Counted from the stretch's first letter, positions 42,394 through 64,000 are shown. The stretch is 64,000 nucleotides of DNA from an uncultured Oscillibacter sp. (GCF_947654275.1 NZ_CANTJS010000002.1:62001-126000); one strand, 5' to 3'. Made by a program: numbers and translations. The notes: generated by a model not told the origin, from the letters alone.

Positions 42394-43131
42394 TCAGATT
42401 TTTTTTCGCAGAATCATATGGCGGATAATGCGGTCAATCAGATATTCCTCCGAATAAAGCACCGGGCGGCCCCCGAAATCAAATCCCACCTCTCCCAAAA
42501 AAAGCAACGGCGAGCCAGGCTCCACCTGGAGAAAATCCGCAACCCTGGGCGGCGCCGGAAGGGCCCGGATCTCTGTCAGATTAAGATAAACCTCGATGTT
42601 TGCCTGCTTTTGAAGGAATGTAAAAATCGACGGCATAAAATCCCGCTTTGTAAACTTCCGCTTGGGCAGACCGGCCAGAGACACATAATCCTTGATATGC
42701 ACGGCGGGACGGTCGCCAGCCCGGGTCACCCGCTCCACTACCAGCAGCGGCGAGCCGGGGGGCAGCTCCAAACTCTTCGCCACCTCACCTTCCGCCGGCT
42801 CCTGGGTTGCCTCAATGAAGTCCGTAGAGGGCTTATATCCTATTTTCTCCAGCGTAGAATCCAGGGACGCCACCAGATCCAGCCGGGTATCCGCACTGAC
42901 AACCCGACGATTAATCAGCGTCCCCACACCCCGGCGGCGGTTGATCATCCCCTCCCGCTCAATCTGAGTCAGGCACTCACGCATCATATTGCGACTGACC
43001 CCAAAATGCTCCGCCAACTCGTTTTCCGGCGGAAGACGGGTGGCATGTAGGAAGGCTCCGCTCTGAATTTCTTCTAAAAGGCGCTGGCGAATACTGTCGG
43101 AAAGATAACGCGAGTCATTTTTCTTCTGCAT
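42394..43131 (-). CDS. GntR/HutC-family transcriptional regulator
   Basis: This 245-residue regulator has an N-terminal GntR winged HTH (about 8-75: RLPPENELAEHFGVSRNMMRECLTQIEREGMINRRRGVGT) and a C-terminal UTRA effector domain (about 90-240: LLVVERVTRAGDRPAVHIKDYVS, LLFLGEVGFDFGGRPVLYSEEYLID). HutC-type regulators sense histidine-degradation products, sugars, nucleoside-like or other small ligands. It is divergent from the catabolic island at 43.6-56 kb and is its natural regulator. The ATG at 43131 (MQKKNDSRYL) is chosen because upstream residues do not match the family; its ribosome site (GAGGG) is weak. Confidence 0.9.
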   Translation of the reverse strand: MQKKNDSRYLSDSIRQRLLEEIQSGAFLHATRLPPENELAEHFGVSRNMMRECLTQIEREGMINRRRGVGTLINRRVVSADTRLDLVASLDSTLEKIGYKPSTDFIEATQEPAEGEVAKSLELPPGSPLLVVERVTRAGDRPAVHIKDYVSLAGLPKRKFTKRDFMPSIFTFLQKQANIEVYLNLTEIRALPAPPRVADFLQVEPGSPLLFLGEVGFDFGGRPVLYSEEYLIDRIIRHMILRKKI

Positions 43132-43500
43132 AGACGCCCTCACATTCTGTCTCTCTGACGGTGGTACTCCCGCCAGAGAACTCATTTGGGATAGTTTTTG
43201 TCGATTTTGTTCATATCATATCATAAATACAAAAAAGGTCAACCCCTGTCAGGAAATATCTGTATGTTTCTCAAGGATCATCAGCCGGAATCAGCGGAAA
43301 AGCTCCTGCCACAGGACAGGTTATTTTTTTGTCCCTTATAAAAATTAGTCAAAAATCACAAAATTTTGAAAGTCAACTACTTTCCTACGGATTTGAATCG
43401 GTTCCAATTATTTGGCGAAATTGATTACAATTTGTAAAAAAAACAAATTTGTTCATCAAAAAGACATAAGTCTTTCCTGCGGGGACAAAGTATAACGTTC

Positions 43501-43529
43501 TTGACACAGGGAAGGAATTACAGTACATT
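43501..43529 (+). promoter_or_regulatory. promoter P1 for the deacetylase-like gene
   Basis: TTGACA (43501-43506) and TACATT (43524-43529) are 17 bp apart. The palindrome TTTGTA-G-TACAAA (43528-43540) begins inside the -10 box, a position suited to repression by the divergent GntR protein. Confidence 0.6.
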
Positions 43530-43540: not shown

Positions 43541-43545
43541 CCAAT

Positions 43546-43574: not shown

Positions 43575-43637
43575 TAGGACATATATGTGTTATTATTTGA
43601 GCGGACCCAGCCGGTTCCCGGAGAGGAGGATGCACAG

Positions 43638-44195
43638 TTGGCAAAAATCTTTTATCTGACCTTTGACGGGGCGGTAAATCCCCCCAATACTCTGCGCATT
43701 TTGGAGCAGCTGGAAAAGCTGGACGTCCGGGCAACCTTTTTCGTGGAGGGCCACCGCATTGCGGGACACGAGAGGATTCTGCGGGACATGGCCTCTGCGG
43801 GGCACCACATCGGCAATCACTCCTTTCACCACCCGGAATTTGATAAAATTCCCATGGAGGACTGCATGGAGGAAATTCGCAGCACGGATGAAGCACTATA
43901 CGCAGCCCTGGGCTTCCGGACGCGGCTGGTGCGCCCGCCCTGCGGCATTCTGCCGGAGGACCGGCGGAGACTGCTGGAACAGGCGGGATACCGGATCAAC
44001 CTCTGGAGCATCAGCGTCAAGGACTGGCTGGGGCCGGATGCCGAGACCGTGGCGGAACGAACCCTTTCCCTGTCCTCCGGCAATGAGGTAACGGCGGTAT
44101 TTCACGACCATCTGGATACCACGGCGGACACGGTGGCCCTTGTGATTCCCCGGCTTCGGGACAAAGGATATGAACTTATGCCAATCCCCTACTGA
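43638..44195 (+). CDS. polysaccharide-deacetylase-fold (NodB-like) protein with altered motif 1
   Basis: This 185-residue protein starts at TTG 43638, eight bases after GGAGAGGAGG; there is no usable in-frame ATG. It has NodB-type motifs 2 to 5: NHSFHH with His61 and His65, RPPCG (99-103), KDWLGPD and FHDH. Motif 1 reads TFDGA instead of TFDDG, so the metal-ligand aspartate is Gly11. The family includes peptidoglycan and chitin deacetylases and also PuuE-type allantoinases. No signal peptide is present, so it is probably cytoplasmic. Placed at the head of an N-heterocycle island, a small-molecule amidase role is more likely than cell-wall modification. Confidence 0.82.
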   Translation: MAKIFYLTFDGAVNPPNTLRILEQLEKLDVRATFFVEGHRIAGHERILRDMASAGHHIGNHSFHHPEFDKIPMEDCMEEIRSTDEALYAALGFRTRLVRPPCGILPEDRRRLLEQAGYRINLWSISVKDWLGPDAETVAERTLSLSSGNEVTAVFHDHLDTTADTVALVIPRLRDKGYELMPIPY

Positions 44196-44331: not shown

Positions 44332-45294
44332 ATGTTTAGTGTCAATCAATACGCGGCGCGGATCGTAAAGGAAGAAATCATCCCCTATGCCGAGAGAATG
44401 AACTGCAAGGTACACCAGCTGAAAAACGGCGCCACTGTTGTCGACATGGGTGTGGAAGCGCCCGGCGGTTACATGGCAGGTAAGCTGTTCGTGGACGCCA
44501 CCATTGGAGGCATGGGCCATGTGGCCTTCAGCCGCTTCCAGTGCGGCGAGATCGATCTTCCCGCCATTGACGTTTACATCGACCAGCCTCCCACGGCCTG
44601 CCTGTCCACCCAGTTTTCCGGCTGGAAGATGCGGGGCAAGGACATCGAGGGCTATATCAATCCCATTGGCTCCGGTCCCGCCCGGGCGATTGCTGTCAAC
44701 GACGTCTTCGCCCAGGCCTGGACCTATCAGGACACCCACCATGAGGCTGTCTTCGGCGCGCAGACCCAGGAGCTTCCCACCGAGGAGGACGCCCAGGACA
44801 TCGCCGACAAGTGCCATATTTCTCCGGAAAATGTTTACATTCTGGCGGCGCGCACTGGCAGCCTTACCGGCTCCATTCAAATCTGCTCCCGCACGGTGGA
44901 GGCCACCATCTCCCGTCTTCAGAAGAAGGGCTTTGACATCAGCAAGGTCATCAGCGGCTATGGCACCTGCCCCATCGCGCCTCCTATCTTTGACGAGCTC
45001 CGGGCCATGGACCGGGTGAACACCGCCTTGATTTACGGCGCAACGGTGAAATATCTGGTGAACTGCGAGGACGCAGAAATCGAAGCCGTGCTGGATCAGC
45101 TGCCCTTCTCTGCCTCCCGCCGCTTCGGAGAGAGATTTTATGACCTCTTCGAGGAGGGAAAGCACGACTTCTACATCGTGGACAAGGATATCCACACCAT
45201 TGCGTACTATGAAATCACCAACCTGGCCACTGGAAGAACCTTCCGTGCCGGTAAAATCCGGGAGGATATGCTGAAGGACTCCCTGTTTAATTAA
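44332..45294 (+). CDS. mch: methenyl-tetrahydromethanopterin cyclohydrolase (Mch)-family protein
   Basis: This 320-residue protein fits the normal Mch size and is collinear with archaeal and methylotroph Mch throughout. Matching segments are MFSVNQYAARIV, NGATVVDMGVEAPGGYMAG, GSGPARAIA (113-121), ENVYILAARTGSLTGSIQICSRTVEATI and SGYGTCPIAPP. The Arg/Glu pair implicated in catalysis (Arg183/Glu186 in the Archaeoglobus enzyme, from memory) is present as Arg187/Glu190. Mch hydrolyses an amidinium carbon between two nitrogens to an N-formyl group. No other tetrahydromethanopterin gene lies in this window and clostridia normally use folate, so its substrate here may be different. AAAGGAG precedes the ATG; it heads a 13-gene operon. 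Confidence 0.88.
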   Translation: MFSVNQYAARIVKEEIIPYAERMNCKVHQLKNGATVVDMGVEAPGGYMAGKLFVDATIGGMGHVAFSRFQCGEIDLPAIDVYIDQPPTACLSTQFSGWKMRGKDIEGYINPIGSGPARAIAVNDVFAQAWTYQDTHHEAVFGAQTQELPTEEDAQDIADKCHISPENVYILAARTGSLTGSIQICSRTVEATISRLQKKGFDISKVISGYGTCPIAPPIFDELRAMDRVNTALIYGATVKYLVNCEDAEIEAVLDQLPFSASRRFGERFYDLFEEGKHDFYIVDKDIHTIAYYEITNLATGRTFRAGKIREDMLKDSLFN

Positions 45295-46454: not shown

Positions 46455-46466
46455 GAGGAACGCGCT

Positions 46467-47576: not shown

Positions 47577-48669
47577 TGTAATTGTGGTGGGCGCCGGGCC
47601 GGCGGGTCTGGGTGCGGCCATTGAGAGCGGGAAGGCCGGAGCCTCTGTCCTGCTGGCGGACGAAAACGACCAGCCCGGCGGGCAGCTGTTCAAGCAGATT
47701 CACAAGTTCTTCGGCTCCCATGACCACTATGCCGGGACCCGCGGCTTCCAAATCGGGCAGCAGCTTTTGGAGGAAGCCGCCCGGGCCCATGTGGAAATCA
47801 GGCTGAGCACACGGGTCTGGGGCATTTTCGAGGATGGAACCGTCTCTGCCTGTACGGAGGACGAGAGTTTTCGGTGCCGGGGAACATGGCTGATTCTGGC
47901 CACCGGCGCCACAGAAAACAGTCTGGTCTTTCCAGGAAATACTCTGCCGGGGGTCATCACCGCCGGCGCGGCTCAGACTATGGTCAACCTGCGGCATGTA
48001 CGGCCCGGCTCCCGCGCCGTGGTGGTGGGATCGGGCAATGTGGGGCTCATTGTGAGCTACCAGTTGCTCCAGGCGGGCATGGACGTGGCCGCCATTCTGG
48101 AGGCCGCCCCCCAGGTTACCGGCTATGCGGTCCACGCCGGGAAGGTCCGGCGGGCGGGGGTGCCTGTTCTCTGTTCTCACACGGTGCTGGAGGCACGGGG
48201 AGAGCGGGAACTGGAAGAGGTGGTCGTCGCCCAGGTGGACGGGCAGTTCCGTCTCATTCCGGGAACGGAGGAGGTCATTCAGGCGGACACCCTGTGCATC
48301 TCTGTGGGGCTGACGCCCCGCTGGGAGCTGGCGGCTCTGTGCGGCTGCAAAATGGATTTCTGCGGCCCCCTGGGCGGGCGGCTTCCCCTCCACAGCGAAA
48401 CGCTGGAAACCACCTGTCCCCATGTTCTGGTGGCCGGGGATCTCTCCGGCATCGAGGAAGCCAGCACCGCCCTGGACGAGGGCCGTCTGGCAGGGGTTCA
48501 CGCGGCGGCAGCCCTGGGGCTTCTGAGCACCGCAGAAAGCGCGGAGCGGGAGCGGGAGATTCAGTCGCGGATCGCCGCCCTGCGGCAGGGGGCCTTCGGC
48601 CGGAAGCGGCAGACCAGCAAGGAGCAAATCTGGAGCCGCTATCACCAGCATCAGGGAGGCGGGCTTTGA
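47563..48669 (+). CDS. FAD/NAD-binding oxidoreductase alpha subunit (HcnB/LhpE-like)
   Basis: This 368-residue pyridine-nucleotide-disulfide-oxidoreductase fold has two dinucleotide motifs: VVGAGPAGLGAAIESGKAG at the N-terminus and VVVGSGNVGLIVSYQLLQAG around residue 148. ENDQPGGQLFKQIHKFFGS is the hallmark found in HcnB/LhpE and sarcosine oxidase alpha subunits. A C-terminal VLVAGDLSGIEEASTALDEGR closes the FAD site. It passes electrons from the amine-oxidising beta subunit to a carrier. It overlaps the genes on both sides. Confidence 0.9.
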   Translation: MKTYDVIVVGAGPAGLGAAIESGKAGASVLLADENDQPGGQLFKQIHKFFGSHDHYAGTRGFQIGQQLLEEAARAHVEIRLSTRVWGIFEDGTVSACTEDESFRCRGTWLILATGATENSLVFPGNTLPGVITAGAAQTMVNLRHVRPGSRAVVVGSGNVGLIVSYQLLQAGMDVAAILEAAPQVTGYAVHAGKVRRAGVPVLCSHTVLEARGERELEEVVVAQVDGQFRLIPGTEEVIQADTLCISVGLTPRWELAALCGCKMDFCGPLGGRLPLHSETLETTCPHVLVAGDLSGIEEASTALDEGRLAGVHAAAALGLLSTAESAEREREIQSRIAALRQGAFGRKRQTSKEQIWSRYHQHQGGGL

Positions 48670-48953
48670 TGGAGAGGAAAAACGCTTATGTGTGCCGCTG
48701 CGAGGAGGTCACCCAGGAGGAAATCATTGCCGCCATCCGGGCGGGAGACACCACCCTGGACGCTGTGAAGCGGCGGACCCGGGCCGGCATGGGGTTCTGC
48801 CAGGGACGGACCTGCCGGCGGCTGGTGGCCCAGCTCATCAGCGCATACAGCGACGTTCCCTTTGACACCGCCCTGGAGGGCAGCGTCCGAATGCCGGTAG
48901 GCCCTCTAAGCCTGGGACTGATTGCCGATACCGCCGGCGGAACGGAGGAGTGA
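48669..48953 (+). CDS. BFD-like [2Fe-2S] domain protein
   Basis: This 94-residue protein has the bacterioferritin-associated-ferredoxin-like cysteine set CRCEEVT .. GFCQGRTC (CxC-x33-CxxxxC). In sarcosine oxidase and LhpE this domain is fused to the C-terminus of the FAD/NAD subunit; here it is a separate gene whose ATG shares one base with the stop of that subunit. The frame is translationally coupled on the other side too (ATGA with the next gene). It probably completes the electron path of the heteromeric dehydrogenase. Confidence 0.87.
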   Translation: MERKNAYVCRCEEVTQEEIIAAIRAGDTTLDAVKRRTRAGMGFCQGRTCRRLVAQLISAYSDVPFDTALEGSVRMPVGPLSLGLIADTAGGTEE

Positions 48954-50293
48954 GCATGCTTCTGATCAAAGACGCTTCCTATGTCATCGTCTCAGCCGAT
49001 CAGGTGCTGCGGAACACGGACGTCCTGATCGACGGCAGCCGCATTTTTCAGGTTGGGCAGAATCTGCCGGAGGCGGGCTGTGAAACCGTCATTGACGCAC
49101 GGGGAAAGCTCCTCTCTCCCGGCTTTGTCAACGCCCATACCCATCTCTATCAGAACATGCTCAAGGGCATGGGAGACAGCCTGCGGCTGAAAGAATGGTG
49201 CGAACAGGTCACGTTCCCCTTTTCCAACGTCATCCACCGTTATGAACGCCAGTTGGGAGACGAGACCCTGGGCTATGCCTATGGGCTGTTGGGTGCGGTG
49301 GAGATGCTCCGCGGCGGCGTCACTGCCTTTATCAACATGGACAACAACATGACCACCCAGCTGGAGGCCTGGGAGGATGTGGGCATCCGGGGTGCGCTGG
49401 CCATTCAGTCCGTGAACAGATGGGTTCCCAAGGAGCTGATGATTCCCGACGGGAAGCGGCTGGAGAAGCTGGAGGAGACCATCTCGGCCTGGCATGGCCG
49501 GGGTCTTCAGGATGTGTATATCGCCCCCTCCACGCCCTTCACCTGCACGCCGGAGTTTATGAAAAAGCTTCAGGCCCTGGCCCGGAAATACGGGGTTAAA
49601 ATCCAGACCCATGTCTCCGAAACCGAGTGGGAGATCCAACAGTCCCTGGAGGAAACAGGTATGACGCCCCTGCGGTATCTGGAGTCCATCGGCTTCCTGG
49701 ACGATCCCATCATCGCCGTCCACTGTGTTCATTTAACGTCGGAGGAAATGGAGCTCTGCCGCCGCCGGAAGGTCACCGTTTGCTACAATCCCAAGTCCAA
49801 CGCCAAGCTGGGCAGCGGCATTGCCCCCATTGCGGAACTGCGGGAAATGGGCGTGGACCTGTGTATCGCCACCGACGGCGCCGCCTCCAACGACCTGCTG
49901 AATATCTTCGAGGACATGCGTCTGGGCGCTATGCTGCAAAAGCTGCGCTACAACGACCCCGCCCGCTTCGGTGAAAAAGAGGTCTTCCGTATGGTCACCG
50001 AAGGCGGCGCCAAGGCCATGGGGCTGGATGCCGGGCGCATTGAGGCCGGAAAGCTGGCGGACCTGATTCTGATTGACTGTGCCTCCGCCTTCATTGCCCC
50101 GGTCCACGATCCTATTTCCACGCTGGTCTATTGCGGAAAGTGCGCGGATACGGTCATCATCAATGGCCGCATCGTCATGGAGGGCGGCGTCATCCAGACA
50201 GTTCCCGAGGCCGAGAAGGTACGGGAGGCCGTCCGGCTGGGTGAGAAACGGTTTGCAGAGACAGCCGGCAGCCCGCTGGCCTCCGAATTCTGA
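48950..50293 (+). CDS. amidohydrolase of the SAH/MTA deaminase-chlorohydrolase family
   Basis: This 447-residue metal-dependent deaminase-type hydrolase has an almost complete metal/catalytic set: His63 and His65 (NAHTHLYQN), His221 and Glu224 (QTHVSE), His258 (VHCVHL) and Asp309 (IATDG). The family's PxSN-motif histidine (usually HxPxSN) reads YNPKSN, so Tyr279 replaces it. Relatives deaminate adenosine derivatives, guanine, pterins or triazines. In this island the likely job is removing an exocyclic amino group from a ring. The start is in an ATGA overlap with the BFD-like gene. Confidence 0.9.
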   Translation: MSMLLIKDASYVIVSADQVLRNTDVLIDGSRIFQVGQNLPEAGCETVIDARGKLLSPGFVNAHTHLYQNMLKGMGDSLRLKEWCEQVTFPFSNVIHRYERQLGDETLGYAYGLLGAVEMLRGGVTAFINMDNNMTTQLEAWEDVGIRGALAIQSVNRWVPKELMIPDGKRLEKLEETISAWHGRGLQDVYIAPSTPFTCTPEFMKKLQALARKYGVKIQTHVSETEWEIQQSLEETGMTPLRYLESIGFLDDPIIAVHCVHLTSEEMELCRRRKVTVCYNPKSNAKLGSGIAPIAELREMGVDLCIATDGAASNDLLNIFEDMRLGAMLQKLRYNDPARFGEKEVFRMVTEGGAKAMGLDAGRIEAGKLADLILIDCASAFIAPVHDPISTLVYCGKCADTVIINGRIVMEGGVIQTVPEAEKVREAVRLGEKRFAETAGSPLASEF

Positions 50294-50305: not shown

Positions 50306-50743
50306 ATGCGAATAATATTCATCGACTGCCCCCAGGAGATTCCCTGCAACCCCTGCCAGTCCGCCTGTGCCGCCGGAGCAATCCAGGTGCCCAGCCTGAC
50401 GGAACGGCCAAGGATTCTGCCGGAAAAATGCGTCGCCTGCGGAAACTGCGTGGCTGCGTGTCCGGGGCAGGCCTGCTTTTTGATTGATGAGGAGTATTCT
50501 GAGACCGAAGCTACCATAGAATTCCCCTTTGAGTTTCTGCCCGTGCCGGAGCAGGGCGAGCTGCGGGAAGCCAGGGACAACGAGGGACAGACGGTCTGCC
50601 TGGGCCGGGTGGTGGAGGTCCTGCCCCGAAATCGCTGGCATGGGACCATGGTGGTCCGGCTGGCAGTGCCGAAAGAGCTGGTCCGGCAGGTCCGGGGCAT
50701 GGCCCGGACGGCTGCGGAGGCGCAAGAAGAAGGGGGGATGTGA
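50306..50743 (+). CDS. two-cluster ferredoxin-like protein
   Basis: This 145-residue protein has eight or more cysteines in two groups: CPQEIPCNPCQSAC at the N-terminus and CVACGNCVAACPGQAC around residues 52-67. This fits two [4Fe-4S] clusters, the first with atypical spacing. The C-terminal half lacks cysteines and reads as a small beta-rich domain. It is encoded directly after the deaminase and near the flavin dehydrogenase, so it may be the electron acceptor linking amine oxidation to the cell's ferredoxin or quinone pool. Confidence 0.82.
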   Translation: MRIIFIDCPQEIPCNPCQSACAAGAIQVPSLTERPRILPEKCVACGNCVAACPGQACFLIDEEYSETEATIEFPFEFLPVPEQGELREARDNEGQTVCLGRVVEVLPRNRWHGTMVVRLAVPKELVRQVRGMARTAAEAQEEGGM

Positions 50744-52262: not shown

Positions 52263-52280
52263 GTGAAGGAGTTGGATCGT

Positions 52281-55458: not shown

Positions 55459-56088
55459 ATGTCAGTTAAAATCCTGGGTATCTGCGGAAGCTACCGGCGG
55501 GCGTCCACCCATGCCGTTTTACAGGCGGCTTTGGAGGAAGCGGCCCTGCAGGAGGGGGTGGAAATCCGCCTCATAGAGCTGCGGGGAATGGATATCCACG
55601 CCTGTGTGGGCTGCAACCGCTGCATACGGGAGAAGGTCAACGCCTGTCTCTCCTTCGACAGTAAGGATGATATGCGGAAGCTGTTTGACGCTTTCCTGGA
55701 GTCAGACGCCTATATCATCGCAACGCCCGTTTACGGCATGGGCATCACGCCCATCCTGTCCGCCGCCTTTTCCCGGTTCCGGCCCAACTTCCTTCTGTCC
55801 CGTGAAAATCCGGACATGAACCTCTATAAGGTAGGCGGAGCCATTGCCGTGGGCGGCGCCCGGAACGGCGGCGAAGAAAGCGCCGTCAGTTGTATCCACG
55901 GCTTCTATCACACCAAAGGCATCACCGTGGTCAACGGCGGACTGGGCGCGTACAGCGGCGGCTGCGTCTGGAGCCGGGACCAGGGGGCCGAGGGGGCTAT
56001 GGCGGACGAAATCGGCATCCGCCACGCCCGTGCTCTGGGCCGCCGGGTGGCCAAGGCCGCCATAGTTATGAAAAAGGGCTCCACATAA
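55459..56088 (+). CDS. NADPH-dependent FMN reductase / iron-sulfur flavoprotein
   Basis: This 209-residue flavodoxin-fold protein has the FMN phosphate loop ILGICGSYRRASTHAVL. A cysteine-containing segment, ACVGCNRCIREKVNAC, resembles the Cys motif of archaeal-type iron-sulfur flavoproteins. ATPVYGMGITP and GGARNGGEES are the remaining flavin contacts. It probably supplies electrons or reduced flavin to the island's redox enzymes. It is the last gene of the rightward operon, 93 bp before a strong terminator. GAGAGGAG precedes the ATG. Confidence 0.88.
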   Translation: MSVKILGICGSYRRASTHAVLQAALEEAALQEGVEIRLIELRGMDIHACVGCNRCIREKVNACLSFDSKDDMRKLFDAFLESDAYIIATPVYGMGITPILSAAFSRFRPNFLLSRENPDMNLYKVGGAIAVGGARNGGEESAVSCIHGFYHTKGITVVNGGLGAYSGGCVWSRDQGAEGAMADEIGIRHARALGRRVAKAAIVMKKGST

Positions 56089-56254: not shown

Positions 56255-56701
56255 TTAATCGGCATATCCGCCGTCCTGGCGCTCCAGGGGATTGATGCCG
56301 GTATAAGGCACGGCGTTTCCGTCGCTGAGCGCCCCTTTGCCGGTGCGGGTAATGGTGCAGCCGGTATATTCCACAATACCACCGATAGCCACAAAGGGCT
56401 TTTTGACGGTGACGGTCACCTTCTCCACCGCGTCGCTGGCGTCGAAAATCTCATCGGAAATCCGCTGTGCGATGCGCTGAACCATTTTGTGCTGCTCGGT
56501 GGTAACCACCTTCTTGGCAGCCGCATACAGGGTCAGGTAGCTGACGCCGGTGGAATAATCATCATCCTGACACTTGCCGGTTTCATCAGACTCGGCCGTG
56601 ATATCGACCACAAATTTCGCGCCGAATTTGTTTTCCTCCGGGAAATAGCCGTGGGTGCCCCAGAACTGCATGCCCTGGGCAATTGTAACGCAGTTTGTCA
56701 T
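56255..56701 (-). CDS. FolB-like T-fold protein (dihydroneopterin-aldolase family) with Glu-to-Gln anchor change
   Basis: This 148-residue protein aligns over residues 1-120 with dihydroneopterin aldolase: GMQFWGTHGYFPEENKFGAKFVVDI, SYLTLYAAAK, and KKP near residue 100. Against the S. aureus enzyme (from memory), Glu22, Tyr54 and Lys100 correspond to Glu23, Tyr55 and Lys100/101. Glu74, which anchors the 2-amino/N3 edge of the pterin, is Gln75 (MVQRIAQRI). T-fold urate oxidases use Gln to hold a 2-oxo ring. About 28 extra residues follow the fold. No folate-synthesis genes are near; it is the last gene of the xdh/dihydropyrimidinase operon. AAGGAGAG precedes the ATG. Confidence 0.83.
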   Translation of the reverse strand: MTNCVTIAQGMQFWGTHGYFPEENKFGAKFVVDITAESDETGKCQDDDYSTGVSYLTLYAAAKKVVTTEQHKMVQRIAQRISDEIFDASDAVEKVTVTVKKPFVAIGGIVEYTGCTITRTGKGALSDGNAVPYTGINPLERQDGGYAD

Positions 56702-58124: not shown

Positions 58125-59480
58125 TCACTTGGTGAAGAGGAAGGTTCCGCTGCCCTTCTTCGCGGTGACCACACCGTTTTCCATGACCACCTCGCCGCCC
58201 TTGATGGTGCGGGTGCACCTTCCCCGGAGGGGAAATCCCTCAAAGATGGAATAGTCGGTGGCTCCGGCTACGTCCTCCATGGTATAGGTCCAGGAGAGGG
58301 CGGGGTCAAAAAAGGCCAGGTCCGCGTCGCTGCCCACGGCGATGACGCCCTTTTGGGGATACAGGCCGTAAAACTTCGCGGCGTTGGAAGATGTCATGCG
58401 TACGAAGGCCTCCATGGACAGCCCCCGCTTCAGCACCGCTTCGGAAAAATAATACTGCATCCGCGTCTGCACGCCGTCCACGCCGCAGGGGACCGTCTCG
58501 TAATTGGTTCCCAGCTTGTACTGTTTGGAGTAGGGGCAATGGTCCGTAGACAGGATGGAAATATCCTCCCGCAGCACCGCCTCCATCAGGGCGTCGGCGT
58601 CCTCCCGGGCCCGGAGGGGCGGGTTCATGGTGTACAGCGCGCCTCTGGGGCCCTCCATGCTCTTCCGGGTGAACTGCATGTAGTGGGGGCAGGATTCCAG
58701 GATAAACGACTCGTTTCCCGCCATGCGTTCCCGGCGGCGGATAGCGGCGGTCTCCCTGCTGCTGGCGTGGGCGATGCAGAGCCGGGTCCCGGTCTCCCTG
58801 GCAATGGCCAGCACGGATTCCACGGCGATCTTCTCAGCAATGTTGGGCCGGGTCAGAGACAGGGCCGTCATGTCGGAGGACTCCGGGTGGAAACGCTCCT
58901 TCATGCAGTCAATGATGCTCTTTTCCTCTGCGTGAACCAACAGGGTCCCCTTGTCGTGAATGACCTCCATGATGTTCCGGAAATCCCCCGGCAGCAGGGA
59001 GGTGCGGGGATAATAGGTATAGGCCTTAAAGGCGGTAATGCCCTGGTCCAGAATGTCCGGAATCCGGGGCAGTTCCCGGCGATAATCCTCAGTAAAGGTG
59101 TAGTGCAGGGCATAGTCCACGGCGCTGTCCCGACCGAAGTCTTTCCGGACCCGGATACACTCCAGGGGATCCTCTCCTTCGCCCGGCTCACAGAAGTCCA
59201 CCACCGTGGTGGTGCCGCCGGCCAGGGCAGCTTTGGAACCGGTATAGAAATCGTCGGCAATGGGCACAGAGCCGAAGCCGCCGAAGTGTACGTGTCCGTC
59301 TACGCCGCCGGGGACCACATACTGTCCCCCGGCGTCGATAATCCCGCAGCCGGGATAGAGAGCGGAAACGTCGCAGTCCGGAGCCAGAATGGCCCGAATC
59401 TTCCCGCCGTCCAGAATCAGAGACACGGAGGCAACCCCGTGCTCCAGGACGGCTTTGCCATTGATGACCGCAGTGACCAT
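58125..59480 (-). CDS. hydA: dihydropyrimidinase / D-hydantoinase family ring-opening hydrolase
   Basis: This 451-residue cyclic amidohydrolase has a complete di-metal site: His63 and His65 (DGHVHF), carbamylated Lys152 (AFKAYTYY), His183 (LLVHAE), His238 (CIAHAS) and Asp313 (STDHCPY). It hydrolyses a cyclic amide or imide such as dihydrouracil, hydantoin or a reduced purine/pterin ring. The ATG at 59480 follows GGAGGAAGGAG; the open frame upstream overlaps the PreA-like gene. It is translated 22 bp after that gene, so reduction followed by ring opening is the natural reading. Confidence 0.93.
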   Translation of the reverse strand: MVTAVINGKAVLEHGVASVSLILDGGKIRAILAPDCDVSALYPGCGIIDAGGQYVVPGGVDGHVHFGGFGSVPIADDFYTGSKAALAGGTTTVVDFCEPGEGEDPLECIRVRKDFGRDSAVDYALHYTFTEDYRRELPRIPDILDQGITAFKAYTYYPRTSLLPGDFRNIMEVIHDKGTLLVHAEEKSIIDCMKERFHPESSDMTALSLTRPNIAEKIAVESVLAIARETGTRLCIAHASSRETAAIRRRERMAGNESFILESCPHYMQFTRKSMEGPRGALYTMNPPLRAREDADALMEAVLREDISILSTDHCPYSKQYKLGTNYETVPCGVDGVQTRMQYYFSEAVLKRGLSMEAFVRMTSSNAAKFYGLYPQKGVIAVGSDADLAFFDPALSWTYTMEDVAGATDYSIFEGFPLRGRCTRTIKGGEVVMENGVVTAKKGSGTFLFTK

Positions 59481-59502: not shown

Positions 59503-60594
59503 TTACCGGATGTAAATGGCTTTCCTCGGGCACAGGCCGAAGCAGAGTCCGCAGACACGGCACTGCTCCGGGTCCACGTGCATGCCGCCCTGCCCGTCAA
59601 GAGAACGGGCCCGGTAGGCACAGGCGGTGACACAGCGGCCGCAGCGGGTGCACTTCTCCGCGTCGAAGCCGAAGTCGGCGGGTTTTTTTTCCTCCAGGCC
59701 GCCCTTGCGGAGTGTCAGGCCGGAGACAGAGGGAATATCGGGATAGCCGTATTGGTCCATCAGGGCGCTGAGCTTTTCCGTCAGCTCCGTAAACACGCCA
59801 GGTCCCTTCACAATGGCGGCGGTGCACACGCCCACGGCGGTGGCGCCGGCCATCAGCATCTCCAGGGCCGCCTCCGCATTTGTGACGCCGCCCAGGCCAA
59901 TGAGGTCCTTGTCCGTATTAATAGCGATGTCATGAACATACCGCAGGGCGATGGGCAGGATGGGCGCGCCGGTCATGTAGCCGTATCCATTGCCGCCAAT
60001 CAGCGGGCGGCCGGTGGCGATATTCACCCGGTAGGTGGGCCCGATGGAATCAATGGCGGTGATGCCGTCGGCCCCCGCCTCGTCGCAGGCCCGTGCGATG
60101 ATCTCCGTATCTTTCCAGTTTCCATTGACCTTGGCAATGATGGGAATTTTAATCGTTTTCTTGACAGCCGTCAGCAGCTCCACCAGGTCCGCCGCCTCGG
60201 TGTATCCGTTGACCAGTTCGATCATATCCGCGCCGGTCTCCTCCGCCATGGAAGCAACCTCCAGAGTCTCCTCCAGACCGCCATAGCCGTAGACGCTGGC
60301 AATCAGGGTCTTGACGCCCAAATCCTTGGCCCGCTTGATCTCATAATCCCGCCAGCGGGTCATAGGCATGTCGGAGCCGCCTTCGTTGTTCAAAAGGCTC
60401 ATGTTCCCGTTGGAAATCATGTGCCGGGTGGTGTTCACCGCGCCGCTGATGGTGATGGACTTGGTCACAACAGCCCCGCAGCCCGCCTTGGCGCAGGCCG
60501 CCAGAGCCTCCGCGTCCCAGCCGCAGGGACCGGAGCCCAGCACAAAGGGGCTGTCCAGCTCCCTTCCGCAGAGCATCGTTTTCAGGTTCGCCAT
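59503..60594 (-). CDS. PreA/dihydroorotate-dehydrogenase-like flavoprotein with two C-terminal [4Fe-4S] clusters
   Basis: This 363-residue protein has an FMN TIM barrel (about 1-300) with SPFVLGSGPCG, VTKSITISG and a phosphate-binding GLGGVTNAEAALEML. A C-terminal ferredoxin domain has two cluster motifs, CTRCGRCVTAC and CRVCGLCFGLCP. It resembles the PreA half of bacterial dihydropyrimidine dehydrogenase. The usual active-site NxSCP loop is replaced by ELVNGYTE (126-133), so the catalytic Cys/Ser is missing. It might reduce another ring or act through a different proton donor. No PreT partner is visible. The ATG at 60594 is chosen by family N-terminus. Confidence 0.88.
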   Translation of the reverse strand: MANLKTMLCGRELDSPFVLGSGPCGWDAEALAACAKAGCGAVVTKSITISGAVNTTRHMISNGNMSLLNNEGGSDMPMTRWRDYEIKRAKDLGVKTLIASVYGYGGLEETLEVASMAEETGADMIELVNGYTEAADLVELLTAVKKTIKIPIIAKVNGNWKDTEIIARACDEAGADGITAIDSIGPTYRVNIATGRPLIGGNGYGYMTGAPILPIALRYVHDIAINTDKDLIGLGGVTNAEAALEMLMAGATAVGVCTAAIVKGPGVFTELTEKLSALMDQYGYPDIPSVSGLTLRKGGLEEKKPADFGFDAEKCTRCGRCVTACAYRARSLDGQGGMHVDPEQCRVCGLCFGLCPRKAIYIR

Positions 60595-60625: not shown

Positions 60626-61075
60626 TCAGGGCATTTGCAGGTATTCCAGAACCGCCTCAATCCGCACAATGTAGCCCGTGCAGCGGCAGAGGTTTCCATT
60701 GAGATAGGCCTTGACCTCGTCATAGGTGGGATTGTGAAGCTCCCTCTTCAGGGCGTAGGCCAGCACCACGAATCCGGGGGCGCACCAGCCGCAGCCTTCG
60801 CCCCCCAGACGGGTCAGGCAATCCACAATTTTGTCCGCCTCCTCCTCCAGCCCCTCCACGGTGACGATCTCCGCTCCGTCCGCCCGGACGGAGAGAACCT
60901 CGCAGCTAACCATAGGCTTCCCGTTCAGCAGCACCGTGCAGGTACCGCAGGCCCCGTCGCCGCAGCTGATTTTCACCGAGGGACAGCCGTGAGCCCGAAG
61001 GGTGTCCGCCAGATATTCGTTGGGAGTGACGTCCCACTCCTGCTTTTTCCCGTTCAGTGTGACTTGAATCTTCAT
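60626..61075 (-). CDS. molybdenum hydroxylase [2Fe-2S] subunit (XdhC/CoxS-like)
   Basis: This 149-residue small subunit has two [2Fe-2S] clusters. The plant-type N-terminal motif is CGDGACGTCTVLLNG with an upstream Cys contact. The helical C-terminal motif is GCGWCAPGF .. LNGNLCRCTGY. It carries electrons from the molybdenum centre to FAD in xanthine-dehydrogenase-type enzymes. Its start overlaps the end of the FAD subunit gene by four bases. Confidence 0.94.
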   Translation of the reverse strand: MKIQVTLNGKKQEWDVTPNEYLADTLRAHGCPSVKISCGDGACGTCTVLLNGKPMVSCEVLSVRADGAEIVTVEGLEEEADKIVDCLTRLGGEGCGWCAPGFVVLAYALKRELHNPTYDEVKAYLNGNLCRCTGYIVRIEAVLEYLQMP

Positions 61076-61869
61076 TGGGCCAGCTCCTCAATTCCCCGCC
61101 GGGCAAACACCCGGCACAATTCCCGCCGGTACTCCGCCGAACCCCGGTAATTGCTGCCGAAACGGTATTCGGCGGCGATATTCTCCGCCAGGGTGGCGGC
61201 TTCCTCCCGGGCCACAGGTCCGCCGTTCATGACAGCCATGGTCCTCTCCGCCAGCTTCGCCCGGCCTGGGAAGGCGCCGGCGGATACAATCCAGTTTCCT
61301 CCTGCCCGGCTCATGGCCAGGCAGAAAACAGAATAGTCGCTGTAGCTAAGCCGGGCCATTTGGACCACGGTGCGGCGTCCCTCTTTCGGCAGGAGAATCT
61401 CCACCAGAATATCCTTCTCCAGACGCTCCTCTTCCATGTAATCCCTCAGGGTCTTAACGCCCCCGCGGTAAAACCGCAGCTTTGCGTTCATGGCCAGCAG
61501 GGTGGGAATGATATCGGAGAAACCGAAGCGGGAGGCTGCATGAGCCCCGATGGTAATGGCATTTCGCAGCTGCACGCCGATGAGATGCTCCATGGATTCC
61601 CGGAGCGCAGGCCCGAATTCCCGCAGGATGACCTCGCTGGTCTCCACCGTCCGCAGGGAGGTATACGCGCCCACGGCCACCTCCGTATCCATCTCCCGAA
61701 TGTAGTCCAGGCCGCAGGCCGCCAGATCGATGGCGGTTCCAATTTTAAGATTGGTCCGCTTAAGAAAGGTGCAGCCCCCCAAAATCCGATTGGCCTTTCC
61801 CTTCATAAGAAGGGCATAGGCTTCTTCCAGCGTATCAGGCTTCACATATTCACGAATCTGCATGGCCAC
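61072..61869 (-). CDS. molybdenum hydroxylase FAD subunit (XdhB/CoxM-like)
   Basis: This 265-residue protein is of the CO/xanthine-dehydrogenase FAD-binding family. The FAD-pyrophosphate motif is GKANRILGGCTFLKRT (around 24-39) and the second motif is QLRNAITIGAHAASRFGFSDIIPTLLA. It oxidises the Fe-S clusters and passes electrons to NAD+ or ferredoxin. The start lies 20 bp inside the end of the molybdenum-subunit gene, so the three subunits are tightly coupled in the order large-medium-small. Confidence 0.93.
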   Translation of the reverse strand: MAMQIREYVKPDTLEEAYALLMKGKANRILGGCTFLKRTNLKIGTAIDLAACGLDYIREMDTEVAVGAYTSLRTVETSEVILREFGPALRESMEHLIGVQLRNAITIGAHAASRFGFSDIIPTLLAMNAKLRFYRGGVKTLRDYMEEERLEKDILVEILLPKEGRRTVVQMARLSYSDYSVFCLAMSRAGGNWIVSAGAFPGRAKLAERTMAVMNGGPVAREEAATLAENIAAEYRFGSNYRGSAEYRRELCRVFARRGIEELAQ

Positions 61870-64000
61870 CCTCCTTTTCCTGGATTGCCTTCAGCACCTT
61901 TTCCGGCGTGATGGGGAGACTGTCGAAATGGATGCCCAAAGCATTAAACAGCGCGTCGGAAATCGCAGGGGCCGGAGAGCCGGTGGCGATTTCTCCCAGG
62001 GACTTGGCGCCAAAGGGCCCCGAAGGCTCGCAGCTTTCAATAAACTCGATGTCCAGCAGAGGCATATCCATCTGACAGGGAATTTTATAGCTCTGGAGAT
62101 CCCGGTTCAGCATCCGATAATCCGTTTTGCCGTATTTGATTTCCTCAAACATGGTCATGCCAATGCTTTGGGTAATGCCGCCCATGGCCTGAATGCGGGC
62201 GTTGCCGGGGTTCAGCACCCGGCCGCAGTCTATGGCGGAGGACATCCGCAGTACCCGGTAGACGCCGGTCTCCCTGTCCACCTCCACCTCCGCGCAGCTT
62301 GCCACATAGGGACTGGGGGCAAAGGTATCCGGGAAGGAAGCGCCGACCACCAGCGGGTCGCCGCCGCCCCAGTAGAAGCCCCATTTGTCAGCAAACTCAA
62401 TCAGGTCCATCAGACGTTCCCCGTTCTCCCGGTAAAAAACCTCATCCCGGAACACCAGCGGCTCATTCTCCGGCAGTCCAGAGGTTTCCCGCACGCTTTT
62501 CCAAAGCAGCTTCTTCATCTTCTCTGCCGCCAGCTTGGCCGCGCCGCCGCAGCGGTAGACATTGGAAGAGGCGTAGGTGCCTGGGTCAAAGGGCGTGCAG
62601 GCGGTATCCGCCGCGAAGAGATGGATGTGGTCCGGCGATACCTCCAGCACCTCCGCCACAATCTGGAGCATAACGGTGTTGGAGCCGGTGCCGATGTCCG
62701 CGTGTCCCGAAAACACGCAGAAGGACCCGTCGGCGTTCATGGCGATATTTACATTGCCCCGGTCGACGCGGGGCACGCCGGAGGCGTGAGAGGCGACGCC
62801 GATGCCCACGCCCCGGACGATGGTTCCGGAGGGCGGCGTGGCGTTGCGCTTCTCCTCCCAGCCAATCAGCTCCATGGACCGCTGGATGCACTCTGCCAGG
62901 GTGGAGCTCTCCACATAGGCCGGGTCGTCCTCCATCCATCCGTTCATGACAGGGTGGGAATCCCCCACCCGGGCAATGTTTTTCAAAAAGACCTCGGAGA
63001 GGTCCAATCCCAACTCATCAGCCAGGTGCCGGGCCGCCACGTTGAGCAAAAAGCAGTTCTGCGTCGCCCCAAAGCCCCGAAAGGCACAGCCCTCCAGCTT
63101 GTTGGTGAATACGGAATACTGCCGGATCCGCATAGCGTCCACCCTGGGGAACAGGGAATAGGAATTTTTGATGCCGGTTTCCAGCACGTCTTCGGAAATT
63201 TCCGAATAGGCGCCGGCATTCTGGATGCCGCTGGAGTCGATGGCCCGGAAGGTCCCGTCCCGGTCGGTGCCGACCGTGAGCTCCAGCATGTATTCGTGAC
63301 GGGTGCCGATGGTGGCCATGGCCTCCTCCCGGCTGAAAATCAGCACGGCGGGGCGCTTGGTCAGATAGGTCACCAGGGCGCACCAGCAGTAGGGACTGAA
63401 GATATTCTTGCCGCCGAAGCCGCCGCCCACCTGGGTCTTGATGACCCGCAGCTTCCTCCGGTCGATGCCCAGGCTCCGGGCCACATCCTCCTGCATGGCG
63501 TCCGCCGCCTGGGTAGGGGCGGAGATGGTCAGAAAACCCCGGTCATCATAGTAGGTATAGCAGCGGTGTGTCTCCAGCTGGGTGTGAATCTGCTGAGGTG
63601 TGTAGACCTTCACATGGGTCACGTGATCGCATTGGGCCAGGACGCCTTCAATATCGCCGTATTCCCGGCAGCTGTAATGGACCTGGTTCTTTTGAGGCAG
63701 GTAGTGCCCCGCCAACTGGGGCTGAATATACATCTCGTCCAGGTGGTCCCCATGGACCACCACATCACTGCCCAGCGCCTGGGTAAAATCCATAACGGGC
63801 CGGTGGATTTTCCACTTGATTTTCAGCAGCCTCCGGGCCCGCTCCGCCGCCTCCTCGGTCTCCGCCGCCACAAGAGCCACCACATCCCCCTCGTACCGGC
63901 CCACCCGGTTCAGGACATGGCGCTCAAAGGGGGTGTAATTCCATCCGAAATTCGTGATGATTCCGGTGTCCTCCCAGGTAAACAGCCGGACAAATCCAGG
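61850..64000 (-). CDS. molybdenum hydroxylase large subunit (XdhA-like), 5' end beyond window
   Basis: At least 716 codons are visible, and the frame remains open to the window edge (first visible residues PGFVRLFTWEDTG), so the N-terminus is missing. Molybdopterin-binding landmarks are QVGGGFGGKN, CAFRGFGATQNCF, GHADIGTGSNTVMLQI and the C-terminal KSLGEIATGSPAPAISDAL, where the catalytic Glu lies in the GE pair. A GVPRV .. HASG segment replaces the xanthine-contact loop wording I remember, so the substrate ring may differ from xanthine. It hydroxylates a C-H between ring nitrogens. An accessory sulfurase or Mo-cofactor gene is not visible here. Confidence 0.92.
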   Translation of the reverse strand, partial: PGFVRLFTWEDTGIITNFGWNYTPFERHVLNRVGRYEGDVVALVAAETEEAAERARRLLKIKWKIHRPVMDFTQALGSDVVVHGDHLDEMYIQPQLAGHYLPQKNQVHYSCREYGDIEGVLAQCDHVTHVKVYTPQQIHTQLETHRCYTYYDDRGFLTISAPTQAADAMQEDVARSLGIDRRKLRVIKTQVGGGFGGKNIFSPYCWCALVTYLTKRPAVLIFSREEAMATIGTRHEYMLELTVGTDRDGTFRAIDSSGIQNAGAYSEISEDVLETGIKNSYSLFPRVDAMRIRQYSVFTNKLEGCAFRGFGATQNCFLLNVAARHLADELGLDLSEVFLKNIARVGDSHPVMNGWMEDDPAYVESSTLAECIQRSMELIGWEEKRNATPPSGTIVRGVGIGVASHASGVPRVDRGNVNIAMNADGSFCVFSGHADIGTGSNTVMLQIVAEVLEVSPDHIHLFAADTACTPFDPGTYASSNVYRCGGAAKLAAEKMKKLLWKSVRETSGLPENEPLVFRDEVFYRENGERLMDLIEFADKWGFYWGGGDPLVVGASFPDTFAPSPYVASCAEVEVDRETGVYRVLRMSSAIDCGRVLNPGNARIQAMGGITQSIGMTMFEEIKYGKTDYRMLNRDLQSYKIPCQMDMPLLDIEFIESCEPSGPFGAKSLGEIATGSPAPAISDALFNALGIHFDSLPITPEKVLKAIQEKEGGHADS

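What the first reader, a model, noticed from the sequence alone, without database searches (positions are those of the whole stretch)
42394..64000. Possible undescribed anaerobic N-heterocycle degradation island combining Mch, a T-fold protein, molybdenum hydroxylase, deaminases and dihydropyrimidinase
Two convergent operons under an apparent GntR regulator encode every function needed to import a ring compound (BMP-type ABC importer), hydroxylate it (three-subunit molybdenum hydroxylase), reduce it (PreA-like), deaminate it (two SsnA/MtaD-family proteins), open a six-membered ring (dihydropyrimidinase), hydrolyse an amidinium carbon (Mch family) and oxidise a resulting amino acid (HcnABC/LhpBEF-like enzyme). 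The xdh-hydantoinase-ssnA-PreA part resembles the E. coli/clostridial purine cluster. Mch and the FolB-like protein are not part of any such cluster I know. Candidate substrates are purines (via imidazolone/formimino intermediates, where Mch chemistry would fit) or pterins/folate fragments.
Basis: partly seen in the sequence, partly recalled or inferred. Interest (0 to 1): 0.88.

Follow-up and report, generated by a model that had tools for sequence, protein, structure and literature searches.

The report
Second anaerobic fused-ring (pterin-like) degradation island
A gut bacterium carries a set of genes that looks built to take up and break apart a purine- or pterin-like ring compound without oxygen, using two enzymes borrowed from vitamin and one-carbon metabolism in which a conserved residue has been switched; what it eats is not yet proven.

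Summary
The genes are real and the set recurs elsewhere. The island runs past the window end to about C2:140,200. There it holds a second Mch, a degenerate Mch-like partner, a YgeY hydrolase, a RibD-like reductase and a second GntR. A Lachnospiraceae contig has nearly the same gene order; Marasmitruncus holds most of the set in one island. The window genome has a true SsnA/YgfK uric-acid set on another contig, so this is a paralogous second reductive pathway.

Island Mch proteins form a clade of 30, separate from 61 other Mch rows. All 91 keep the catalytic Arg and Glu. One Glu, invariant in the 61, is Gln in all 30. The island FolB keeps its aldolase residues but has Gln at the Glu known (recalled) to anchor the pterin 2-amino group; two folate-operon FolBs examined keep Glu. 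No HPPK was found in the genome, so this FolB is unlikely to serve folate synthesis. Both swaps suggest a deaminated (2-oxo) fused pyrimidine.

I favour pteridine (lumazine) degradation, with xanthine-type purines as main rival. Substrate and every reaction remain unproven.

The parts
42394..43185 (-). GntR/UTRA regulator 1 (GntR1), paralogue of GntR2 at C2:127616-128383 outside the window
   Evidence: PF07702 88 bits, PF00392 61 bits; 47% identical to GntR2
43587..44195 (+). Small polysaccharide-deacetylase-family protein heading operon 1; role unknown
   Evidence: PF01522 97 bits; PDA-type genes near orphan Mch elsewhere are on the other strand
44332..45294 (+). Mch1, island-type Mch with catalytic R187/E190 kept and Gln at position 144
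   Evidence: PF02289 345 bits; tree; residues
45315..46454 (+). DAO-fold FAD oxidoreductase (best NCBIfam model ThiO 104 bits, below cut-off)
   Evidence: PF01266 191 bits
46467..47243 (+). Amidohydro_2 family hydrolase or decarboxylase
   Evidence: PF04909 110 bits; weak counterpart (27%, 41 bits) beside Mch in L087
47256..47576 (+). 2Fe-2S subunit (HcnA-like by position and domain)
   Evidence: PF13510 109 bits
47563..48669 (+). FAD/NAD subunit (Pyr_redox_2)
   Evidence: PF07992 117 bits; sarcosine oxidase alpha family 160 bits, below cut-off
48669..48953 (+). BFD-like 2Fe-2S subunit
   Evidence: PF04324 61 bits; coordinates
48950..50293 (+). SsnA/TRZ-ATZ-family amidohydrolase a (deaminase-like)
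   Evidence: PF01979 235 bits; nearest PDB 4f0r, 3hpa
50306..50743 (+). Ferredoxin-like 4Fe-4S protein
   Evidence: PF12838 32 bits
50745..52262 (+). ABC transporter ATPase of the BMP-type importer
   Evidence: ORF read; 43% to the ABC ATPase of the second importer
52263..53324 (+). BMP-type substrate-binding lipoprotein
   Evidence: NF047927 90 bits, below cut-off
53432..54508 (+). Importer permease a
   Evidence: similarity to permeases of BMP importers in related loci
54508..55443 (+). Importer permease b
   Evidence: similarity to permeases of BMP importers in related loci
55459..56088 (+). NADPH-dependent FMN reductase family protein
   Evidence: PF03358 78 bits; family near 9 of 30 island Mch genes, 0 of 61 others
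56255..56701 (-). FolB-like T-fold protein with Gln at the pterin-anchor position and a conserved C-terminal tail
   Evidence: PF02152 85 bits; TIGR00525 86.8 bits
56721..58055 (-). SsnA-like amidohydrolase b, 90% identical to its Lachnospiraceae counterpart
   Evidence: SsnA model 173.7 bits, cut-off 444; nearest PDB 3hpa, 7ww2
58125..59480 (-). Dihydropyrimidinase/hydantoinase-like hydrolase (HyuA-like)
   Evidence: TIGR02033 308 bits, cut-off 393
59503..60594 (-). PreA/UacX-like DHO_dh flavoprotein with C-terminal ferredoxin motifs
   Evidence: PF01180 95 bits; 41% to a C. difficile homologue beside SsnA-like genes, 37% to the one beside true SsnA
60626..61075 (-). Mo hydroxylase 2Fe-2S subunit (XdhS)
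   Evidence: PF01799 68 bits
61072..61869 (-). Mo hydroxylase FAD subunit (XdhM)
   Evidence: NCBIfam FAD-subunit models up to 60 bits, all below cut-off
61850..64000 (-). Mo hydroxylase large subunit (XdhL); extends to C2:126183. Asn where two uric-set XdhDs have Glu

Best explanation
The island is a second, paralogous version of the anaerobic reductive ring-degradation pathway known for uric acid. It acts on another fused pyrimidine, most likely a pteridine such as pterin, neopterin, monapterin or biopterin, imported by BMP-type ABC (or, in sister clusters, NCS2) permeases. Proposed order, inferred throughout: a TRZ/ATZ-type SsnA paralogue removes the 2-amino group, giving a 2-oxo lumazine; the Mo hydroxylase oxidises or reduces ring or side-chain carbon; FolB removes a C6 polyol side chain by retro-aldol chemistry; Mch, helped by the degenerate Mch-like partner, hydrolyses a C=N bond at N5. 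Candidates for that bond are the N5=C6 imine of a 7,8-dihydrolumazine, which would open the pyrazine ring to a 5-amino-6-alkylaminouracil that the RibD-like enzyme could reduce, or a cyclic amidine. The PreA-like flavoprotein then reduces the pyrimidine, HyuA/SsnA-like hydrolases open it, YgeY cleaves the ureido acid, and the Hcn/Lhp-like dehydrogenase oxidises the amine left. Shown here: gene content, conservation, an operator motif shared within the GntR2 set, a separate island Mch clade and diagnostic residue changes. Not shown: substrate, any reaction, expression.
For: Recurring set: L077 has importer-SsnA-FMN reductase-Mch2-MchLike-GntR2-XdhLMS-PreA-HyuA-SsnA-FolB in one run; Marasmitruncus has Mch2-MchLike-FMN reductase-FolB-UbiD-XdhL/M-ALDH-ABC-SsnA-PreA-YgeY-HyuA-SsnA. 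One regulon: ATAGGTnnnACCTAT is exact at only 2 sites in the 3.05 Mb assembly, before GntR2 and before the FGGY kinase, and one-mismatch before the importer-Mch2 operon (5 sites with up to 1 mismatch; reversed control 2); L077 has 3 exact sites, one before a permease gene and one before its GntR2. Not uric acid: true SsnA (607 bits, cut-off 444) and true YgfK (1277.6 bits, cut-off 835) lie on contig C28; the Mo hydroxylase residue after GGKx is Asn in 4 of 4 window-type enzymes and Glu in the two XdhDs of uric sets. Changed Mch: 30-row clade at 100/99; Glu to Gln 30/30 against 0/61, catalytic Arg/Glu 91/91. FolB: Gln anchor in window, L077, L059, L075; Glu in two folate-operon FolBs; no HPPK hit in this genome. 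Pteridine hints: FolB itself; a RibD_C-type reductase, 11/30 against 0/61; UbiD in Marasmitruncus. No Fae in 10 Mch+ genomes.
Against: No substrate is demonstrated, and a bare lumazine has no amidine, so the Mch step needs an untested imine hydrolysis. The role of the Mch Glu (AfMch E140 by my count) is assumed from the FolB parallel; I could not inspect 4GVQ/4GVR/4GVS. Residue roles in DHNA, XDH and uricase are recalled. Both Glu-to-Gln changes fit xanthine as well as lumazine. A second Xdh at the uric locus of this genome has Gln, not Glu, at the Mo-hydroxylase position, so that marker is not clean. FolB is within about 10 kb of 3 of 30 island Mch genes; 9 of 30 island loci had none of XdhL, SsnA, RibD-like, FolB, LsrF or FGGY by the threshold, some at contig ends. 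With 2 mismatches allowed the operator count in L003 is not rare (3 matches; 16 of 200 shuffles reach it). The lipoyl-complex and sugar-type genes of sister clusters are not explained in detail. No YgeW/UacY or YgeX was recognised in the window island. G064, with Mch, has no SsnA over the cut-off.
Confidence: 0.45

Rival explanations
1. The island degrades a purine without the 8-oxo group (xanthine/guanine, or an N-substituted purine or nucleoside). The PreA-like enzyme reduces the C4=C5 bond of xanthine, giving an imidazoline (cyclic amidine N7-C8H=N9), and Mch hydrolyses it to a formamido dihydrouracil, as it hydrolyses methenyl-H4MPT. HyuA, SsnA-like and YgeY then finish as in the uric-acid pathway.
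For: Chemical fit of Mch to a cyclic amidine (inference); Gln anchors suit a 2-oxo purine; PreA/HyuA/YgeY types as in the published uric-acid pathway; NCS2 and BMP importers in sister clusters; nearest PDB relatives of the SsnA-like enzymes include an 8-oxoguanine deaminase.
Against: FolB and RibD-like have no obvious role; window-type XdhL lacks the Glu of two uric-set XdhDs; the genome already has an SsnA/YgfK set with Xdh genes; type A clusters have Mch but no PreA/HyuA on the stretches held.
Confidence: 0.3
2. Mch works in its classical role in one-carbon metabolism (methenyl-H4MPT or methenyl-H4F cyclohydrolase) and merely sits beside catabolic genes, for instance recycling C1 units released from ring carbon.
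For: Catalytic Gln/Arg/Glu invariant; Mch1 above the TIGR03120 cut-off.
Against: No Fae in 10 Mch+ genomes (other H4MPT genes not searched); separate 30-row clade; invariant Glu replaced in 30 of 30; neighbours XdhL, SsnA-like, RibD-like and E1 near island Mch but near 0 of 61 others; up to five Mch or Mch-like hits per genome; a degenerate partner.
Confidence: 0.1
3. The island degrades folate- or methanopterin-type cofactors: Mch opens the 5,10-methenyl bridge, FolB and the Mo hydroxylase trim the C6 carbon, and FGGY, LsrF-like aldolase and dehydrogenases of sister clusters use the polyol part.
For: Mch and FolB chemistry both occur on such cofactors (established knowledge); FGGY, LsrF-like and three alcohol dehydrogenases sit with Mch2 in L042-L044; folic acid deamination to deaminofolic acid is published for Variovorax (PMC9513972, abstract).
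Against: NCS2 and BMP permeases suggest a small nucleobase- or nucleoside-like substrate; no enzyme to cut the aryl part was recognised; the Gln anchors would require deamination first.
Confidence: 0.1

Closest known systems
Reductive uric acid degradation cluster (XdhD, YgfK/UacX, SsnA, HyuA, YgeW/UacY, YgeY, YgeX; Li et al. 2025, PMC12507026)
   Same: Mo hydroxylase, DHO_dh-type reductase (UacX type), SsnA-like and HyuA-like hydrolases, YgeY; ring reduction followed by hydrolysis
   Different: SsnA paralogues far below the SsnA cut-off, three in the window genome's island; Mch, Mch-like partner, FolB, RibD-like and FMN reductase added; a true SsnA/YgfK set coexists in the same genome. The word methanopterin does not occur in that paper's main text
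Methenyl-H4MPT cyclohydrolase (Mch) of methanogens and methylotrophs (PDB 1QLM, 4FIO, 4GVQ-S)
   Same: Family, length, catalytic Arg and Glu
   Different: Island clade; Gln for a Glu invariant in 61 others; His/Asp for a Phe invariant in 61 others; no Fae in 10 Mch+ genomes; catabolic gene neighbourhood; degenerate second Mch-like protein
Dihydroneopterin aldolase FolB
   Same: FolB domain, catalytic Glu/Tyr/Lys equivalents by alignment, over the TIGR00525 cut-off
   Different: Pterin-anchor Glu is Gln; conserved C-terminal tail; no HPPK hit in the genome; sits in a catabolic operon
Pterin, isoxanthopterin and 8-oxoguanine deaminases of the amidohydrolase superfamily
   Same: Same TRZ/ATZ amidohydrolase family; nearest solved structures include an 8-oxoguanine deaminase entry
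   Different: Substrate of the island enzymes unknown; published pterin deamination of folic acid is in soil Variovorax (PMC9513972, abstract)

Membership tests
Reductive uric acid cluster (Li et al. 2025) | SsnA over its curated cut-off (NF005540, 444 bits) | tested here: not met
   Island paralogues 159, 173.7 and 145.9 bits; a true SsnA (607 bits) lies on contig C28
Reductive uric acid cluster (Li et al. 2025) | Reductase YgfK or UacX (DHO_dh) | tested here: inconclusive
   PreA-like DHO_dh present, 37% to the C. difficile homologue beside true SsnA and 41% to another beside SsnA-like genes; true YgfK is on contig C28
Reductive uric acid cluster (Li et al. 2025) | XdhD-type Mo hydroxylase with Glu after GGK | tested here: not met
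   18 aligned rows: Asn in window, L077, L059 island and L151; Glu in the uric-set XdhDs of L152 and L153; Gln in the other Xdh of L153; Ile or Leu in nine type A rows; Asp in two. That this position is a defining purine contact is recalled
Reductive uric acid cluster (Li et al. 2025) | YgeY hydrolase | tested here: met
   485.5 bits, cut-off 321, at C2:126390-127574, just outside the window
Reductive uric acid cluster (Li et al. 2025) | YgeW/UacY and YgeX in the cluster | tested here: inconclusive
   None recognised by eye among island ORFs; no family search was made for them. A weakly UacY-like amidohydrolase is in the Marasmitruncus island (23%; no model over cut-off)
C1-type Mch | TIGR03120 equivalog cut-off | tested here: met
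   Mch1 289.5 over 228.8; Mch2 216.4, just below
C1-type Mch | Catalytic Arg and Glu (AfMch R183/E186) | tested here: met
   91 of 91 rows
C1-type Mch | Glu at the AfMch E140 position | tested here: not met
   Gln in 30 of 30 island rows, Glu in 61 of 61 others; the role of this residue was not checked in a structure
C1-type Mch | H4MPT-dependent C1 pathway in the genome | tested here: not met
   Fae (PF08714) in 0 of 10 Mch+ genomes; other H4MPT genes not searched
FolB for folate synthesis | TIGR00525 cut-off | tested here: met
   86.8 over 72.15
FolB for folate synthesis | Pterin-anchor Glu | tested here: not met
   Gln in window, L077, L059, L075; Glu in the FolBs of G688 and G599 and in the 3 PDB alignments shown of 10 hits
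FolB for folate synthesis | HPPK in the same genome | tested here: not met
   PF01288 without a hit in 9 of 11 genomes, the window genome among them (93% complete); present in G688 and G599
Pteridine degradation pathway | Activity on pterin or lumazine | not testable with these tools
   No assay possible; residue and context inference only

The most novel reading that the evidence does not exclude
An undescribed anaerobic pteridine catabolic pathway in gut Clostridia, with relatives in some Anaerolineales, built on the reductive purine pathway. In it two cofactor enzymes of unrelated fold, Mch and FolB, each exchanged a conserved Glu for Gln so as to bind deaminated (2-oxo) rings, and Mch, with a degenerate paralogue as partner, became a ring-opening dihydrolumazine cyclohydrolase.
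Probability: 0.27. Interest if true: 0.88.

Novelty: new variant of a known kind. Interest (0 to 1): 0.72.

Why it matters
If right, it gives a non-C1 role to Mch, an enzyme known to me only from one-carbon metabolism, and a fate for the pterins that bacteria release (PMC13259868, passages only: pterins are excreted; a term search of its text gave no hit for catabol-, deaminase or lumazine). It would also show that the reductive purine logic has been copied for other rings in gut anaerobes. The Glu-to-Gln prediction in two unrelated folds is directly testable by single-residue enzymology.

Tried and rejected
Rejected: PDA-Mch adjacency as a conserved pair. In four Oscillospiraceae genomes a PDA-type gene lies within about 5 kb of an orphan Mch, but on the other strand, and these Mch rows belong to the 61-row group. 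Rejected: FolB as a folate gene. Rejected: the island as the uric-acid pathway itself. Rejected: one GntR for both operons.

Led nowhere: paper searches for a published Mch cluster of this kind or for pterin degradation, for the role of AfMch E140 and for T-fold anchors; a clear GntR1 operator (only a 2-mismatch GntR2-like site at 43570, 4 matches against 2.86 expected). An unbiased count of FolB with Gln was weak because it is rare: 1 of 391 genomes, the window's own, and 2 of 300, own and G050, both with Mch. The G284 double FolB was missed at that threshold and found later. Not used: structure prediction, fold search.

Rows dropped or uneven: the contig scan kept the best 80 of 358 confirmed loci. 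The tree used 91 of 105 Mch hits; 4 short Mch-like rows and identical duplicates were left out. The regular expression scored 10 of 18 Mo-hydroxylase rows; one search aligned all 18. In one search the pattern did not catch the G284 FolBs; their Gln was read by eye. In the neighbour scripts the first ABC ATPase reference was in a wrong frame (noted), so ABC genes were recognised through the second. Flanks cut by contig ends make absences there count little. Several named loci are the same contigs as G-handle stretches (for example L117 and L028, L093 and L033); identical Mch rows were counted once in the tree.

Full report
WHAT IS THERE. The window is C2:62001-126000 of a 3.05 Mb assembly in 111 contigs. 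The island continues beyond it. Reading on past the Mo hydroxylase large subunit, which extends to C2:126183, come a YgeY-type M20 hydrolase (485.5 bits, cut-off 321), a second GntR, a degenerate Mch-like protein, a second Mch (239 bits), an FMN reductase, a third SsnA-like amidohydrolase, a RibD_C-like reductase and a second ABC/BMP importer, all on the minus strand, with a divergent FGGY kinase. So there are two Mch genes and two BMP importers in about 36 kb.

CONSERVATION. In 300 genomes of the family PF02289 occurs in 9, the window genome included, and in none of 5 others of the genus; in a class sample in 2 of 391. It is a rare, patchy trait. One contig scan gave 80 loci, the best of 358 confirmed. 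Gene order around Bacillota and Chloroflexota Mch genes shows several cluster types. (a) Window-like: the Lachnospiraceae contig L077 follows the window genome from importer to FolB at 51-90% identity per gene, with one extra BMP gene and without RibD-like and YgeY on the stretch held. Marasmitruncus (L059 plus L156) has Mch2, Mch-like, FMN reductase, FolB, a UbiD decarboxylase, XdhL/M, an aldehyde dehydrogenase, ABC, SsnA-like, PreA-like, YgeY, HyuA-like, SsnA-like and a weakly UacY-like gene. (b) Type A, 14 stretches tallied: Mch with an SDR, E1 and lipoyl E2 subunits in 14 of 14, SsnA-like and RibD-like in 10, XdhL in 9, an NCS2 permease in 8; hosts include Pseudoflavonifractor, a Clostridium and three genomes labelled Clostridioides difficile; some stretches end at contig ends. 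(c) Sugar type (L042-L044): LacI, LsrF-like aldolase, FGGY, FMN reductase, three alcohol dehydrogenases, Mch2 with its Mch-like partner, and in L043/L044 a BMP importer. (d) L075, which joins parts of several: Xdh, SDR, LsrF-like, Hcn/Lhp-like dehydrogenase, Mch, E2, an HpaB-family protein, SsnA-like, two GntR, FolB. L075, L059 and L077 were found through their Mch, so they show linkage, not an unbiased frequency.

A SECOND REDUCTIVE PATHWAY. The published uric-acid pathway uses XdhD, YgfK or UacX, SsnA, HyuA, YgeW or UacY, YgeY, YgeX (PMC12507026: abstract, passages and section 9 seen). The island has the same logic, but its SsnA-like proteins score 146-174 bits against a cut-off of 444. A true SsnA (607 bits) and a true YgfK (1277.6 bits, cut-off 835.3) lie with Xdh genes on contig C28 of the same genome; the Lachnospiraceae and Marasmitruncus genomes likewise have separate SsnA and YgfK, C. 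difficile a separate SsnA with a PreA-like (UacX-type) gene, and G050 a separate SsnA; G064 has Mch but no SsnA over the cut-off. The island is therefore a paralogous set, presumably for another compound. The Mo hydroxylase agrees in part. At the residue after GGK, 18 aligned rows show Asn in 4 of 4 window-type enzymes, Glu in the two uric-set XdhDs, Ile or Leu in nine type A rows and Asp in two others; but a second Xdh at the C28 locus has Gln. That this position corresponds to the purine-binding Glu802 of bovine XDH is recalled.

MCH HAS CHANGED. A tree of 91 Mch rows puts 30 island rows, both window-genome Mch proteins included, apart from 61 archaeal, methylotroph, planctomycete and orphan Firmicutes rows (100/99; long branches noted, root by midpoint). 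Gln, Arg and Glu at window positions 183, 187 and 190 are invariant in all 91; Glu186 of the archaeal enzyme is placed by the Glu-to-Gln difference between the sequences of 4gvq and 4gvr in the alignment. Position 144, Glu140 of the archaeal enzyme by my count, is Glu in 61 of 61 and Gln in 30 of 30; position 288 is Phe in 61 of 61 and His or Asp in 30 of 30. Neighbours within about 10 kb differ too: XdhL 13/30 against 0/61, SsnA-like 15/30 against 0/61, RibD-like 11/30 against 0/61, E1 subunits 15/30 against 0/61, Mch-like partner 13/30 against 0/61, but FolB only 3/30, PreA 2/30, HyuA and YgeY 1/30. Related loci make these counts non-independent, and nine island rows had none of XdhL, SsnA, RibD-like, FolB, LsrF, FGGY. 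The Mch-like partner is a shortened Mch relative (hhalign probability 99.2%); the catalytic Glu is missing in 6 of 6 and the Gln in 6 of 6, while the Arg is uncertain (kept in 3 of 6 in one alignment; opposite a gap in the window-genome row in the other). No Fae in 10 Mch+ genomes.

FOLB HAS CHANGED LIKEWISE. The FolB-like protein keeps, by alignment, the Glu, Tyr and Lys of dihydroneopterin aldolase, but the Glu that binds the pterin 2-amino group and N3 (recalled role) is Gln. Gln is found in window, L077, L059 and L075, in three further FolB-like proteins of G050 and in both halves of a fused FolB of G284; these last lie beside BMP importers and FMN reductases without a nearby Mch. Two of the G050 proteins also lack the first Glu. 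In G688 and G599, where FolB sits beside HPPK, the anchor is Glu. The window, Lachnospiraceae and Marasmitruncus genomes have one FolB-family hit each and no HPPK hit. From general knowledge, urate oxidase, another T-fold enzyme, uses Gln for its 2-oxo substrate; recalled, not tested.

REGULATION. ATAGGTnnnACCTAT lies before GntR2, before the FGGY kinase and, with one mismatch, before the importer-Mch2 operon; two exact and five up-to-one-mismatch sites exist in the whole assembly against two for the reversed pattern. In L077 three exact sites occur, one before a permease gene and one before its GntR2. With two mismatches allowed, L077 has 5 matches (0 of 100 shuffles reach that) and L003 has 3 (16 of 200 shuffles do). 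So the second operon of the finding and the Mch2 operon probably form one GntR2 regulon. The first operon has GntR1 (47% identical) and no clear copy of this site.

MECHANISM. Two unrelated folds with Glu to Gln at, or probably at, the pterin anchor point to a 2-oxo fused pyrimidine, lumazine- or xanthine-like. FolB, the RibD-like reductase, UbiD and the changed Mo hydroxylase favour pteridine. Mch on a cyclic amidine favours purine, since C4=C5-reduced xanthine contains an imidazoline. In the pteridine reading Mch would hydrolyse the N5=C6 imine of a dihydrolumazine, the reverse of the ring closure in pterin formation, and the RibD-like enzyme would trap the product; this is inference. In type A clusters the SDR and the E1/E2/E3 complex would suit oxidation and cleavage of a biopterin-like side chain; also inference. 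I give 0.45 to pteridine, 0.30 to purine, 0.10 each to C1 metabolism and to folate/methanopterin breakdown. The checks did not change these odds.

NOVELTY. Searches in the held library for Mch with purine or pterin degradation found no such cluster (listings only except the papers named here); subscription papers are mostly not held. The closest prints seen are the uric-acid pathway and folic acid deamination by Variovorax (PMC9513972, outline and abstract only). The system is a new variant of reductive N-heterocycle degradation with two recruited and altered enzymes.

Noticed in passing
L051, L053, L054, L129: Three genomes labelled Clostridioides difficile, and G599, carry a conserved type A cluster: NCS2 permease, XdhS/L, SDR, Mch, E1/E2/E3 complex, SsnA-like, RibD-like.
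   Followed up: partly
L151 (G688:C79): The same C. difficile genome as L051 has a further PreA-like/SsnA-like x2/XdhLMS/HyuA-like/YgeY cluster on an 11.5 kb contig, distinct from its true-SsnA set (L152).
   Followed up: partly
L028 (=L117), L029, L033 (=L093), L034, L091: Orphan Mch of the Glu type in Oscillospiraceae and Formimonas; alaS lies next to it in L028, L029 and L034. Fae absent in the one tested (G098). Function unexplained.
   Followed up: partly
L087 9938-10909 and flanks: Anaerolineales Mch of the island clade beside two SsnA-like genes, a luciferase-family oxidoreductase (PF00296), a carbamoyltransferase (nearest model N-acetylornithine carbamoyltransferase) and two proteins that look like aldehyde:ferredoxin oxidoreductases; no Xdh seen.
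   Followed up: partly
L128 (G050:C124) and L169 (G284:C57): FolB-like genes with Gln anchor (three separate; one fused double) beside a BMP importer and FMN reductase without Mch near; in G050 followed by a GlpA-like gene and a true glycerol kinase.
   Followed up: partly
window 56255-56701, C-terminal part: The four island FolBs share a nearly invariant tail after the FolB domain (consensus KGANSDGNAVPYTGINP), not part of the Pfam domain match.
   Followed up: no
L003 18284; L077 20554-20895: Small cupin-looking protein conserved next to the FGGY kinase (window genome) and next to FolB (L077).
   Followed up: no
L059 12690-14045; L075 13297-14775: UbiD-family decarboxylase beside FolB in Marasmitruncus, and an HpaB-family protein between E2 and SsnA-like in L075; their steps are unknown.
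   Followed up: partly
window 43587-44195: Small PF01522 protein heads the Mch1 operon; could be an N-deformylase or cyclic amide hydrolase, but no operon counterpart was seen in the relatives examined.
   Followed up: no
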